Shown piece by piece: positions 3,303 through 5,526 of a stretch of DNA of 5,526 nucleotides. The position numbers and the translations under genes were made by a program. The stretch is from an uncultured Veillonella sp. Its GTDB lineage: Bacteria > Bacillota > Negativicutes > Veillonellales > Veillonellaceae. Within the stretch, counting starts at the first letter, position 1; each line of letters opens with the position of its first letter. The stretch covers positions 1 through 5,526 of the forward strand of contig CAKQBP010000101.1 of NCBI GenBank assembly GCA_934216375.1. Direction: 5' to 3'. The notes below the pieces were generated by a model that was given only the letters and a program-made list of their open reading frames with translations, did not search any database and had not been told where the DNA came from.

Positions 3303-4319
3303 ATGAAATCTAGTAGTTTGGCATGGTATGTGGCGGTGGCTTGCATTGGAGGAAGCCTTTGTGTGGGTTCTGTAGTACAGGCGAATTCTCCAGAGACGGT
3401 GAAAGTAAATAGCCCTGTTTCTGCTGCTGTTGTAACGCAGGCTCAACCAGCTCAACCTGTTACTGTTACAGCAGCTAAGAATGATGTAGCTAGTGCTGCA
3501 GCAAATAATACAGTAGCTAATAATGCGGTAGTTAATAGTGAATCGGCGAATGATGCGGCAACACAGGTTGAACAGGCAGCACTCAAGCAAAAGCAGCAGT
3601 ACCAAGCTGACACAGAGACGATGGGGCTGTTATGGATGCGCACCTCTGCGGAGTACAGAGCGCTGGCGTATCAAGGGTATAATGTGGCAATGAATGCCGT
3701 TAAGATGGCCGTTACTGATCCATCTCATCAAAGAAAACCTTTAGCTATCGTTCTTGATGCGGACGAAACTGTAGTGGATAATACCAAGTTGATGGGTGAA
3801 AGTATAGCAAACGGTAATGGTCGTTTTGATGCTCCTTGGTGGCGTCAAGCCGTGCATCAAGGAAAATCGCAAGCCATGCCTGGAGCCGTTGAATTTTTAA
3901 ATGAAGTTCATAAACAAGGGGTAGAAATCTTCTATGTTTCAAATCGCTACGCACCTGTAAACCTTGACGTAACGATACAGAATTTTAAAGAACTAGGATT
4001 CCCATCTGTTGATAAAGACCATGTACTACTATTCGAAAAAGACTCTGACAAACAACCTCGCTTTGATATGATTGCCAAAAAATATTATGTCGTTGTATAC
4101 ATGGGCGATAACGCCGGTGATTTTCCAATCGGTACAAAAGGCAAGACTTTAGCTGAAAGAAATGGCATCATCGATGCTCATAAAGAAGACTTTGGTACTA
4201 CCTTTGTCGTATTCCCAAACCCTGCCTATGGATCTTGGGTAAGTGCATTGGCAAAAGGCTATCAAAACCTCAGCCCAGAAGAACAAAAACAAGTGAATAA
4301 CCAATACCTACAACAATAA
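3303..4319 (+). CDS. Secreted HAD-superfamily acid phosphatase / 5'-nucleotidase, e(P4) (class C) family
   Basis: The 338-residue protein has the four HAD IIIB signatures: LDADETVVDN with nucleophile Asp152 and Asp154, FYVSNR with Ser213, a lysine region FEKDSDKQPR (Lys246 or Lys250), and MGDNAGDF with Asp269 and Asp273. Family members are Mg-dependent phosphatases outside the cytoplasm that remove phosphate from nucleotides such as NMN, releasing nucleosides for uptake. Residues 1-27 form a signal peptide (hydrophobic AWYVAVACIGG, cleavage after VQA). The Cys residues at 14 and 20 do not sit in a good lipobox, so despite the family name it may not be a lipoprotein. Residues 28-95 are a low-complexity Ala/Val/Asn/Gln linker, after which the core begins near QYQADTETMGLLWMRTSAEY. 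AGGAGG 5 nt before the ATG fixes the start. The gene is alone in its unit. Substrate is not predictable. Confidence 0.9.
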   Translation: MKSSSLAWYVAVACIGGSLCVGSVVQANSPETVKVNSPVSAAVVTQAQPAQPVTVTAAKNDVASAAANNTVANNAVVNSESANDAATQVEQAALKQKQQYQADTETMGLLWMRTSAEYRALAYQGYNVAMNAVKMAVTDPSHQRKPLAIVLDADETVVDNTKLMGESIANGNGRFDAPWWRQAVHQGKSQAMPGAVEFLNEVHKQGVEIFYVSNRYAPVNLDVTIQNFKELGFPSVDKDHVLLFEKDSDKQPRFDMIAKKYYVVVYMGDNAGDFPIGTKGKTLAERNGIIDAHKEDFGTTFVVFPNPAYGSWVSALAKGYQNLSPEEQKQVNNQYLQQ

Positions 4320-4334
4320 GTTTATAAGTGACGA

Positions 4335-4398
4335 CTATAGCAATTAGCTATTAACCAATGTTTATAACAATGAGCTAATAACTGCTATCTATAGCAAT
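4335..4398. repeat. Direct repeats flanking an inverted repeat behind the phosphatase gene
   Basis: CTATAGCAAT occurs at 4335-4344 and 4389-4398. Between them, ATAGCA plus ATTAGCT on the left (from 4337) can pair with AGCTAAT plus TGCTAT on the right (to 4388), with a short bulge. There is no T-run, so it is at best a weak or factor-dependent terminator. It could also be a remnant of a small inserted element. Confidence 0.4.
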
Positions 4399-4407
4399 AA
4401 GGACGCC

Positions 4408-4437
4408 TTGCGTATACTTTATTAAAAACGATATAAT
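4408..4437 (+). promoter_or_regulatory. Promoter of the tRNA-Arg / guide-RNA unit
   Basis: TTGCGT (4408-4413), an 18-bp spacer and a perfect TATAAT (4432-4437). RNA would begin near 4444, only about 5 nt before the tRNA 5' end, a typical tRNA promoter position. No further promoter is seen before the terminator at 4596-4623, so this one probably drives both RNAs. Confidence 0.65.
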
Positions 4438-4448
4438 AAAGTGTACAT

Positions 4449-4525
4449 GCGTCTATAGCTCAACCGGACAGAGCGTCAGTTTCCTAAACTGTAGGTTGGG
4501 GGTTCGATTCCCTCTAGGCGCACCA
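4449..4525 (+). tRNA. tRNA-Arg (anticodon CCU, reads AGG)
   Basis: All arms fold. The acceptor GCGTCTA pairs with TAGGCGC (one G-U), followed by discriminator A and an encoded CCA at 4523-4525. The D stem is GCTC/GAGC. The anticodon arm TCAGT/ACTGT surrounds TTCCTAA, placing CCT at 4483-4485. The variable loop is AGGTT, and the T arm GGGGG/CCCTC has loop TTCGATT. The outermost anticodon-stem pair is T-T (4476/4492), a small irregularity. It decodes the rare AGG codon. The tRNA is followed without any gap or terminator by the guide-like RNA at 4526. Confidence 0.95.
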
Positions 4526-4623
4526 GTAGGATAGAGCTGCAGTTTCGCCTTAATACTCGTAAGAATCTATTAAGGTAGGGCCTTGTGCCGAAATCAAAGG
4601 ACACAATTTATTTGTGTCCTTTT
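4526..4623 (+). ncRNA. Putative natural single-guide RNA (fused crRNA-like and tracrRNA-like RNA)
   Basis: In order: 21 nt between the tRNA CCA and the scaffold (4526-4546, ending GCTGCAGTTTC) that could serve as guide; a repeat-like strand GCCTTAATACTC (4547-4558); a GTAA tetraloop (4559-4562); an anti-repeat GAATCTATTAAGGT (4563-4576); a nexus GGC-CTTGT-GCC (4579-4589); the linker GAAATCA; and a terminator hairpin. The eight-pair lower stem, the AC versus ATCT bulge and the nexus match the repeat:tracrRNA duplex of the array next door. Positions 4562-4596 align ungapped to tracrRNA 4789-4823 with 27 of 35 identical, all differences being transitions. Four pairs are changed on both strands with pairing kept. 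This is the architecture of engineered single-guide RNAs for Staphylococcus aureus-type Cas9 (from memory). A role in Cas9-guided repression, as for S. pyogenes long-form tracrRNA, is inferred. It could instead be a decaying tracrRNA copy, though the covariation argues against that. Confidence 0.8.
4596..4623 (+). terminator. Terminator of the tRNA / guide-RNA unit
   Basis: AAAGGACACAA (4596-4606) pairs perfectly with TTGTGTCCTTT (4612-4622) around a 5-nt loop, ending in TTTT (4620-4623). It occupies the place of the 3' hairpin of a guide-RNA scaffold, directly after the linker shared with the tracrRNA, so it may act both as terminator and as a Cas9-bound stem-loop. Confidence 0.85.
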
Positions 4624-4728: not shown

Positions 4729-4757
4729 TTGACATATAAGTAATACTGATATATTAT
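4729..4757 (+). promoter_or_regulatory. tracrRNA promoter
   Basis: A perfect TTGACA (4729-4734), an ideal 17-bp spacer and TATTAT (4752-4757, 5/6). RNA would start near A4764, immediately before the anti-repeat at 4766. This is the strongest promoter seen in the window. Confidence 0.85.
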
Positions 4758-4763
4758 GTAATT

Positions 4764-4893
4764 AGATTTTACCATAGCGAAAGGTTACAGAATCTACTAA
4801 AATAAGACTTTATGTCGAAATCACTACTATCAAGTAGTTATTAACAATAGTATATGTAAATTTTGTTAGTAGTACATATTACTAATGTTTTTT
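4764..4893 (+). ncRNA. tracrRNA of the type II CRISPR system
   Basis: The trans-acting RNA pairs with the repeats of pre-crRNA so that RNase III can cut the duplex, and then holds the crRNA in Cas9. Bases 4766-4803 are an anti-repeat to the 36-nt array repeat: TTTTA, CATAGCGAAA, TTACAGA and ACTAAAA match exactly, G4783, G4784 and T4803 form G-U pairs, and ATCT at 4792-4795 forms the bulge. The nexus GAC-TTTAT-GTC (4806-4816) follows, then a 6-bp hairpin ACTACT/AGTAGT (4823-4838). An AT-rich hairpin with TTTTTT ends it near 4893; readthrough would extend it to 4936. The CAGAATCTACTAAAA segment and the nexus spacing closely resemble S. aureus Cas9 tracrRNA as I remember it. It lies upstream of the array on the same strand. 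Confidence 0.93.
4848..4893 (+). terminator. First, AT-rich terminator of the tracrRNA
   Basis: TAGTATATGTA (4848-4858) pairs with 4873-4884 with a single bulged base and a 14-nt loop; TTTTTT follows at 4888-4893. A shorter alternative stem TTAGTA/TACTAA (4866-4885) competes. The low GC content suggests it may leak, which would explain the stronger terminator just behind it. Confidence 0.6.
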
Positions 4894-4905
4894 GTGTGGA
4901 ATTTT

Positions 4906-4936
4906 GAGCACAGGTCTTATGATCTGTGCTCTTTTT
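4906..4936 (+). terminator. Second, strong terminator between tracrRNA and array
   Basis: GAGCACAGGTC (4906-4916) pairs with GATCTGTGCTC (4921-4931), 11 pairs including one G-U, with loop TTAT and then TTTTT (4932-4936). It would stop tracrRNA readthrough into the CRISPR array, so the array should need its own transcription start. Confidence 0.88.
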
Positions 4937-4942
4937 GTTATT

Positions 4943-4978
4943 GATTTATTATAGCGAAAAGCTACAAAAGTGCTTAAC
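4943..4978. repeat. Inverted degenerate CRISPR repeat (leader anti-repeat)
   Basis: This 36-nt stretch resembles the reverse complement of the array repeat: TTTAT, ATAGCGAAAA, TACA and a final AAC are shared. In RNA, 4945-4961 could form 17 continuous pairs with the 3' half of a repeat, including two G-U pairs. It ends 12 nt before the first repeat. It also resembles the tracrRNA anti-repeat at 4766-4803. It could act as a cis hairpin arm or be an inactive remnant. Confidence 0.65.
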
Positions 4979-4990
4979 TTCGTTGTTGAG

Positions 4991-5526
4991 GTTTTAGTAC
5001 TCTGTAATTTTTCGCTATGATAAAACCATTAGAGCCACGTGCTAGGAAGCTCTATGGTTTTAGTACTCTGTAATTTTTCGCTATGATAAAACGGTTTTTA
5101 GAACACACCTCGCTAGTTGCGGGTTTTAGTACTCTGTAATTTTTCGCTATGATAAAACCTCGTAGGGGCGAATTCACCAAGCAGCTTGGTTTTAGTACTC
5201 TGTAATTTTTCGCTATGATAAAACGTATAAGTAGAAGCAAATACCATTCCGTTAGTTTTAGTACTCTGTAATTTTTCGCTATGATAAAACCTATCGCCAT
5301 TGATAAGACTGTTCGCCAGAGTTTTAGTACTCTGTAATTTTTCGCTATGATAAAACGTAGAGCAGGAAAGGTGCCCCTTATGATTAGTTTTAGTACTCTG
5401 TAATTTTTCGCTATGATAAAACAATACTGTTGTATGGTCGTTTAACACGTTAGTTTTAGTACTCTGTAATTTTTCGCTATGATAAAACTCATCCTTACCT
5501 CTCTCTAAACTATCATTAGTTTTAGT
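4991..5526 (+). CRISPR. Type II CRISPR array, eight complete repeats plus a partial ninth
   Basis: The 36-nt repeats begin at 4991, 5057, 5123, 5189, 5255, 5321, 5387 and 5453, and a ninth starts at 5519 and is cut by the window edge. Each begins GTTTTAGTACTCTG and ends CTATGATAAAAC. All eight complete copies look identical, and all eight spacers are exactly 30 nt and differ from each other. The GTTTTAG start and the matching tracrRNA upstream show a type II (Cas9) system read on the + strand, with the leader on the left, so the newest spacers should be at 5027 onward. The first part of the repeat matches my memory of the S. aureus Cas9 repeat. No cas gene is present here; cas9 and any adaptation genes are expected to the right or elsewhere. 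No spacer has an obvious match within the window. Confidence 0.99.

What the first reader, a model, noticed from the sequence alone, without database searches (positions are those of the whole stretch)
4526..4623. A natural single-guide RNA scaffold encoded beside a Cas9-type CRISPR array
Sequence: GCCTTAATACTC, a GTAA tetraloop and GAATCTATTAAGGT fold as a fused repeat:anti-repeat, followed by a nexus hairpin, a linker and a 3' hairpin. The 4562-4596 segment aligns ungapped to tracrRNA 4789-4823 (27/35 identical, eight transitions). Four pairs differ on both strands with pairing kept: two T-A to C-G and one G-C to A-T in the lower stem, and A-T to G-C in the nexus. The AC/ATCT bulge and the GAAATCA linker are kept. 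Knowledge: engineered single-guide RNAs have this layout, and S. pyogenes long-form tracrRNA is a natural example that represses the cas promoter. Inference: this is a dedicated, separately encoded single-guide RNA, probably regulatory.
Basis: partly seen in the sequence, partly recalled or inferred. Interest (0 to 1): 0.95.

Follow-up and report, generated by a model that had tools for sequence, protein, structure and literature searches.

The report
tRNA-fused Cas9 guide guarding its locus
In this Veillonella DNA a tRNA gene runs straight into a predicted natural single-guide RNA for Cas9, whose guide stretch closely matches the ordinary version of that same tRNA gene in related species but not the altered copy beside it, so it would likely make Cas9 cut DNA that brings the ordinary version back and thereby protect the CRISPR locus from being replaced.

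Summary
The scaffold is real: window 4547-4623 folds as fused repeat:anti-repeat, nexus, linker and terminator-like hairpin (z -4.8), with compensatory changes against the tracrRNA, and scaffold to linker is 47/49 conserved in V. parvula SKV38 while the following gap is 67/97. The 21 nt between the CCA end of tRNA-Arg(CCU) and the scaffold (4526-4546) match the D-arm to anticodon of the ordinary tRNA-Arg(CCU) gene with 1-2 mismatches in 7 of 8 Veillonella genomes carrying that allele. The tRNA copy fused to it mismatches the guide at 6 of 21 positions, two in the seed. The target's flank CTAA, in the anticodon loop, fits NTAR, the PAM I infer from four spacers. SKV38 carries the same unit before tracrRNA, array, cas9, cas1, cas2 and csn2, and has no other site within 3 mismatches of the guide's 19-nt core. 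Best reading: a tRNA-processed natural sgRNA that turns Cas9 against the unaltered haplotype of its own site, with the altered tRNA as antidote, in a naturally competent species. RNA, Cas9 loading and cleavage are untested; no perfectly matching target was found; altered tRNAs also occur in four genomes without this Cas9.

The parts
4408..4437 (+). likely promoter of tRNA-Arg and sgRNA (TTGCGT, 18 nt, TATAAT)
   Evidence: read from the sequence by eye; same bases upstream of the tRNA in L001-L004; not reported by the consensus scan
4449..4525 (+). tRNA-Arg (anticodon CCT), altered allele with encoded CCA; would escape the guide (6 of 21 mismatches, two in the seed; pair 27-43 is T/T)
   Evidence: ARAGORN, Rfam RF00005 66 bits, allele table
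4526..4546 (+). 21-nt guide GTAGGATAGAGCTGCAGTTTC; 1 mismatch to native tRNA-Arg(CCT) in six relatives
   Evidence: conserved 20 of 21 in SKV38
4547..4576 (+). fused repeat:anti-repeat duplex, 9 bp + 2 bp with GTAA tetraloop and C/ATC internal loop
   Evidence: tetraloop is GTGA in SKV38
4579..4589 (+). nexus hairpin GGC-CTTGT-GCC
4590..4596 (+). linker GAAATCA, identical to the tracrRNA linker
4596..4623 (+). 3' hairpin with T-rich tail, terminator-like; likely end of the tRNA-sgRNA transcript
4729..4757 (+). tracrRNA promoter-like site TTGACA-17-TATTAT
   Evidence: 11 of 12 consensus matches
4764..4935 (+). tracrRNA (start inferred; anti-repeat, nexus, linker 4764-4818; terminator-like 4906-4931)
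   Evidence: I1-I9 inverted repeats, terminator, covariance model hit at the same place in SKV38
4945..4969 (+). anti-repeat-like copy in the leader, could pair with the first repeat
   Evidence: D5, I10; similar stretches before the first repeat in L144 and L146, by eye
4991..5526 (+). type II CRISPR array, 36-nt repeats, 30-nt spacers (8 repeats + a partial one in the window)
   Evidence: D1, spacers

Best explanation
The tRNA-Arg(CCU) gene and a predicted natural single-guide RNA form one unit whose 21-nt guide closely matches the native tRNA-Arg(CCU) allele of related Veillonella but not the altered tRNA copy it is fused to, so the unit would likely direct Cas9 to cut the native allele and spare its own. 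Proposed steps: (1, inferred) one transcript from the tRNA promoter ends at the 4596-4622 hairpin. (2, inferred) tRNA 3' maturation after CCA frees an RNA whose 5' end is base 1 of a 21-nt guide, as in engineered tRNA-gRNA units. (3, inferred from the shared scaffold) the Cas9 of the locus loads it without crRNA or tracrRNA. (4, predicted) the target is the native tRNA gene with PAM C35-T36-A37-A38 inside the anticodon loop, a PAM that the target can hardly lose without losing its anticodon. (5, inferred) when transformation or recombination would replace the CRISPR haplotype by the native one, or leave mixed chromosome copies, Cas9 cuts the native copy; the altered tRNA is the antidote. The unit thus works as a toxin-antidote guard (addiction and allele exclusion) of the CRISPR-Cas9 island, in the logic of synthetic cleave-and-rescue elements.
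For: Shown: window guide against native alleles 20/21 in 6 genomes, 19/21 in G004, 18/21 in G010; against altered alleles 15/21 in 5 genomes and the window (the gene was at hand in 13 of 14 genomes). The guide begins directly after CCA and abuts the scaffold. Identity to SKV38: tRNA 76/77, guide 20/21, scaffold to linker 47/49, following gap 67/97; scaffold differences lie in loops only, and GTAA to GTGA keeps a GNRA loop. PAM: 5 distinct protospacers of 4 spacers with an intact 12-nt PAM-proximal end carry NTAR, 5 of 5 (base rate 4.06%), and the tRNA flank CTAA fits; it was not used to derive the motif, but I had seen it before. SKV38 holds cas9 (1064 aa), cas1, cas2 and csn2 behind the same array, with RuvC and HNH motifs in the alignment to solved Cas9 structures (residue roles recalled). 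No other site within 3 mismatches of the 19-mer in SKV38. Each of the 13 genomes gave one full-length tRNA-Arg(CCT) match; the lesser hits checked, 4 loci, are anticodon CCG. SKV38 is naturally competent, and genomic DNA is its best substrate (PMC5397411, passages). Pair 27-43 is missing in 6 of 6 altered rows and present (G-C or G-T) in 8 of 8 native rows.
Against: No perfect target: every native allele differs from the window guide at one base or more, mostly at position 9 from the PAM, and 0 of 380 Negativicutes genomes hold the exact 25-mer. Altered alleles also occur in 4 genomes without this sgRNA or this Cas9 (G012 has a different, larger Cas9), and they differ from native ones outside the protospacer too (T-arm, variable loop), so immunity need not be why they arose. 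Seed bases may pair with the linker in the free RNA. The NTAR motif rests on four spacers; of the 24 weaker protospacer rows only 3 fit it, and a 1-mismatch S38_14 row has ATTG. Only two instances of the unit are known (window, SKV38). No RNA or cleavage data.
Confidence: 0.57

Rival explanations
1. Autoregulation as in tracr-L: the sgRNA guides Cas9 to bind without cutting, at its own tRNA-sgRNA gene (partial match) or another host site, and tunes expression.
For: Natural sgRNAs of this use are known in S. pyogenes (PMC11417352, passages). The guide keeps a 7-nt PAM-proximal match and the CTAA flank at its own tRNA.
Against: Two adjacent seed mismatches (8, 9) and four distal ones at its own tRNA; no other site within 3 mismatches of the 19-mer in SKV38 (the reversed control pattern gave 2); in a looser scan of the window and of 21 kb around the SKV38 locus, limited to NTA flanks, only its own tRNA and one 6-mismatch site at L001:5748, away from the cas genes. 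The guide fits the native allele over 20 bases, more than the 11 used by tracr-L.
Confidence: 0.1
2. Ordinary immunity: the guide is a fixed, spacer-like guide against mobile elements or phages that carry or integrate into native tRNA-Arg(CCU).
For: The locus behind this tRNA holds different cassettes in different genomes, and G006 keeps a cut native tRNA 3' part behind one.
Against: 0 exact matches of a 19-nt part of the guide in the IMG/VR collection; elements entering at the anticodon loop usually carry the 3' part of the tRNA, not the D-arm targeted here (recalled).
Confidence: 0.12
3. Relic: a recombination scar left a piece of the native tRNA behind the altered tRNA, next to a decayed tracrRNA copy; nothing is made or used.
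For: A tRNA remnant does occur at this place in G006. Only two instances of the unit are known.
Against: Guide and scaffold stay 95-96% identical while the next 97 columns are 69%; the scaffold changes are in loops; full pairing with compensatory changes; working guide length and PAM fit.
Confidence: 0.1
4. The sgRNA is a decoy or anti-CRISPR RNA that occupies Cas9, brought in by a mobile element.
For: A phage-encoded tracrRNA with an inactivated Cas9 is described in a review (PMC11656645, passages).
Against: It carries a guide with a recognisable target, sits beside the array in both instances, and 0 viral contigs match a degenerate scaffold pattern.
Confidence: 0.04

Closest known systems
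tracr-L, long tracrRNA of Streptococcus pyogenes type II-A
   Same: natural single RNA that joins guide, repeat:anti-repeat and nexus for Cas9
   Different: tracr-L is an isoform of tracrRNA that represses the cas promoter through 11 matching bases; here a gene behind a tRNA, 21-nt guide, best match is the native allele of that tRNA
CreTA / CreA guards of type I CRISPR-Cas
   Same: a guide RNA outside the array that would make the CRISPR-Cas locus hard to lose; a rare arginine tRNA is involved in both
   Different: CreA directs Cascade to repress an RNA toxin that uses up tRNA-Arg(UCU); here Cas9 itself would be the toxin and the altered tRNA gene the antidote; no toxin RNA was recognised here
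Delocalized (homing) crRNAs of CRISPR-associated transposons I-F and V-K
   Same: off-array guide aimed at a conserved site at or near a tRNA gene where the element sits
   Different: RNA-guided transposon insertion; here an intact-looking Cas9 nuclease, no transposase seen in the SKV38 island frames listed, and an altered copy of the target carried along
Cleave-and-Rescue / toxin-antidote gene drives (engineered)
   Same: Cas9 plus guide against the wild-type allele, linked to an altered copy that resists cutting
   Different: engineered; here natural and bacterial, target is a tRNA gene, rescue copy is upstream in the same unit
Engineered polycistronic tRNA-gRNA units
   Same: guide RNA fused directly behind a tRNA end
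   Different: natural; guide meaning tied to the tRNA itself (comparison recalled, no call)

Membership tests
Natural Cas9 single-guide RNA | fused repeat:anti-repeat, nexus and linker homologous to the tracrRNA of the same locus | tested here: met
Natural Cas9 single-guide RNA | guide of working length directly 5' of the scaffold | tested here: met
   21 nt between CCA and scaffold
Natural Cas9 single-guide RNA | PAM-flanked matching target | tested here: inconclusive
   native tRNA targets with 1-3 mismatches and CTAA, which fits the inferred NTAR; no perfect target in the data held
Natural Cas9 single-guide RNA | RNA is made and bound by Cas9 | not testable with these tools
   no expression data
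tracr-L autoregulator | guide targets the cas promoter | tested here: not met
tracr-L autoregulator | isoform of the tracrRNA gene | tested here: not met
   own place at 4526-4623; tracrRNA at 4764-4935 with its own promoter-like site
CreTA module | degenerate repeats of a type I system with a toxin RNA beside them | tested here: not met
   type II-A locus in SKV38; no frame of 60 aa or more and no Rfam family at E 1 or below between tRNA and array; an unknown toxin RNA is not excluded
Cleave-and-rescue logic | guide matches the unaltered allele and mismatches the linked copy | tested here: met
   window guide 1-3, SKV38 guide 2-4 mismatches to native, 6 to altered
Cleave-and-rescue logic | native allele is cut and the linked copy rescues | not testable with these tools
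   needs experiment
Type II-A CRISPR-Cas | cas9, cas1, cas2, csn2 next to array and tracrRNA | tested here: met
   in SKV38 (csn2 only by PADLOC, E 2.5e-07, none in NCBIfam or Pfam); the window ends inside the array

The most novel reading that the evidence does not exclude
A natural bacterial gene drive: Cas9 with the tRNA-born sgRNA cuts the native tRNA-Arg(CCU) gene in cells or chromosome copies that lack the island, the break is repaired from the island copy, and the island with its uncuttable tRNA spreads through competent Veillonella populations. Altered tRNA alleles in strains without this Cas9 would be resistance alleles or footprints of past drives; G006 even keeps a native tRNA 3' part that begins at the exact predicted Cas9 cut position.
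Probability: 0.25. Interest if true: 0.97.

Novelty: new variant of a known kind. Interest (0 to 1): 0.9.

Why it matters
The natural single-guide RNA that I found described, tracr-L, represses cas genes. A guide welded to a tRNA and aimed at the normal allele of that tRNA would be a natural toxin-antidote use of Cas9, showing how CRISPR loci can hold their place in competent bacteria. It would give a natural precedent for cleave-and-rescue gene drives, a natural tRNA-guide processing unit, and an explanation for altered tRNA alleles at a defence hotspot. The core claim can be tested with one in vitro cleavage assay and one deletion.

Tried and rejected
Spacer targets in GenBank phages: 101 records, best E-value 2, 80-95% identity over short pieces, no Veillonella in the organism tally; dropped as chance. 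Plasmid search with tRNA+sgRNA: 86 records, none covering 80% of the query; the 10 listed match the tRNA part only. IMG/VR scans for a 19-nt guide part, a 23-nt part of one SKV38 spacer and a degenerate scaffold: none. An isolated repeat-like piece near the larger Cas9 of G012 and G013 (L151, L152), noted at first as possibly tracr-L-like, reads by eye as the anti-repeat of their tracrRNA; withdrawn. My first spacer parse cut four bases off most spacers (21 SKV38 spacers); one search replaced it, with 18 SKV38 and 7 window spacers, and drops three irregular ones that one search had listed. I considered that the altered tRNA arose only for immunity; not provable, since the alleles differ over much of the gene.

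Full report
WHAT THE WINDOW IS. The 5526 bases carry a Y-family polymerase C-terminus, a catalase, an HAD IIIB acid phosphatase, tRNA-Arg(CCT) 4449-4525, the finding, a tracrRNA with promoter-like site and terminator and a CRISPR array that runs off the end. The same locus was found in Veillonella parvula SKV38 (L001, one of 4 loci), 97% identical over tRNA plus sgRNA. There the array is followed by cas9 (1064 aa), cas1, cas2 and a Csn2 (Csn2 is seen by PADLOC only), so this is a type II-A system. The Cas9 matches solved Cas9 structures over residues 2-1057; the RuvC and HNH motifs are present in the part of the alignment printed (residue roles recalled). The window itself does not reach cas9.

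OBSERVATION. The 77-nt scaffold has a 9-bp lower stem, a C/ATC internal loop, a 2-bp upper stem with a GNRA loop, a 3-bp nexus with a 5-nt loop, the 7-nt linker GAAATCA shared with the tracrRNA, and a terminator-like hairpin. Against SKV38 the scaffold differs in the tetraloop, in the nexus loop and by one base of the terminator loop. Identity is 76/77 for the tRNA, 20/21 for the guide, 47/49 for scaffold to linker and 67/97 for the gap that follows. The same alignment counts 21/28 for the terminator hairpin, because it places the one-base gap further 3'; one search shows a single deleted base. This pattern speaks for selection on an RNA.

THE GUIDE. Position 4526 is the base right after the encoded CCA. 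The 21 bases 4526-4546 match the tRNA-Arg(CCT) gene of relatives from the D-arm to C34. I compared the window and SKV38 guides with the 13 tRNA-Arg(CCT) genes found in 14 Veillonella species genomes (G005 gave only a CCG tRNA) and with the window itself. The native allele (8 of 13) has 1 mismatch to the window guide in 6 genomes, 2 in G004 and 3 in G010; the SKV38 guide has 2, 2 and 4. The altered allele (5 of 13, and the window) has 6 mismatches to either guide, at positions 21, 20, 19, 15, 9 and 8 from the PAM side. The native stretch with at most one mismatch over 25 bases is in 14 of 380 Negativicutes genomes (7 Veillonella, 7 others of the family), so it is probably the ancestral form; each of the 14 has exactly one mismatch to the guide-plus-flank pattern. 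In SKV38 the only site within 3 mismatches of the 19-nt core is the guide itself (reversed control 2). A looser local scan limited to NTA flanks shows its own tRNA and one 6-mismatch site at L001:5748, none at the cas genes.

PAM. I scanned 25 spacers (18 SKV38, 7 window) against 1.34 Mb of held loci without this array: 29 distinct rows at up to 8 mismatches. Five rows from four spacers have no mismatch in the 12 PAM-proximal bases: TTAACA (S38_1), ATAGGC and ATAAGC (S38_18), TTAGCA (S38_14), TTAACA (S38_6). All five are NTAR. Of the 24 weaker rows 3 fit (TTAAAT for W_6 in SKV38, TTAGTA, GTAATC); among those that do not are ATTGCC (S38_14, one mismatch, in the seed), CATACT and TCTAAC. NTAR occurs at 4.06% of positions in 22 phage loci. 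The native tRNA target is followed by CTAAAC, which fits; I had seen this flank before I read the motif, so the fit is not blind. CTAA is the anticodon loop itself, so an escape tRNA must change its seed, and the altered alleles do: bases 26-27 are changed, and pair 27-43 is lost in 6 of 6 altered rows and kept, as G-C (6) or G-T (2), in 8 of 8 native rows.

HOW IT WOULD WORK. Shown by sequence: tRNA, guide, scaffold and terminator-like hairpin in one unit, guide close to the native allele, altered copy in cis. Inferred: co-transcription (no promoter-like site between tRNA and guide, though that scan also misses the likely tRNA promoter), release by tRNA 3' processing, Cas9 loading, cutting. 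SKV38 is naturally competent, and genomic DNA is the preferred substrate (PMC5397411, passages), so replacement of this locus by DNA of relatives is a realistic event. The island lies exactly behind the tRNA: homology of SKV38 with L002-L004 stops at the tRNA end and resumes at 18563; L002 and L004 have in between one long gene that looks by eye like a YadA-type adhesin. A cell that swaps the island for the native haplotype would still hold Cas9-sgRNA and would be cut.

ALTERED ALLELES WITHOUT THIS Cas9. G006, G009, G012 and G014 have the altered tRNA but no sgRNA and no Cas9 of this kind; G012 has a different, larger Cas9. Behind the tRNA lie an MmeI-type restriction gene (G006, G014), a type I restriction system (G009) or a 181-aa gene without Pfam match (G012). 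So the altered tRNA goes with several cassettes and need not have arisen against the guide. In G006 the native tRNA 3' part remains 4.3 kb downstream and starts at index 33, which is the predicted Cas9 cut (3 bp from CTAA) and also a usual integrase crossover place (recalled). Undecided.

RARITY. The covariance model found the sgRNA in 1 of 380 Negativicutes genomes and in no further one of 398 genomes drawn from the phylum (SKV38 is in both sets); the only other hits in the class lie at the tracrRNAs of SKV38, G024 and G043 (strict filters lose weak matches). Cas9 of this kind at E 1e-90 or better: 3 of 380. For G024 and G043 the model gave no tRNA-fused copy, and the stretches fetched hold no tRNA (G024) or one tRNA-Pro (G043).

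LITERATURE. tracr-L is described in PMC11417352 (passages); CreTA in PMC12737573 (passages) and in PMC9458426 and PMC8501985 (listing and abstract start); delocalized crRNAs of CASTs in PMC11656645 (passages); cleave-and-rescue in PMC7951863 (listing and abstract start). I saw no report of a natural sgRNA aimed at a tRNA gene in the rows listed by searches; these cover open-licence papers only and show only the top rows.

VERDICT. Natural sgRNA: very likely (about 0.85, untested). Target native tRNA-Arg(CCU): likely (about 0.8).

Noticed in passing
L150 (G006) 7165-7209 and 11544-11620: A native tRNA-Arg 3' part starting at index 33 lies 4.3 kb from an altered full tRNA-Arg, with an MmeI-type restriction gene between; the junction equals the predicted Cas9 cut and the anticodon loop.
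   Followed up: partly
L144 (G024), minus strand near 7158: A shortened tracrRNA-like piece (anti-repeat end, nexus) behind a TTGACT/TAGTAT promoter-like site (by eye) directly upstream of cas9, in addition to the full tracrRNA near 1500.
   Followed up: no
window 4945-4969; L144 and L146 leaders: An anti-repeat-like copy sits in the leader before the first repeat in three related loci and could form a leader-repeat hairpin, as reported for Cas13 arrays (PMC13187072, abstract start in the listing only).
   Followed up: no
G001:C1:480055-480088 (L064): Window spacer W_6 matches the SKV38 chromosome with 4 mismatches and a TTAA flank.
   Followed up: no
window 4298-4401: A diverged repeat of period 27 between phosphatase and tRNA, about 80 bases of which are absent from SKV38.
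   Followed up: no
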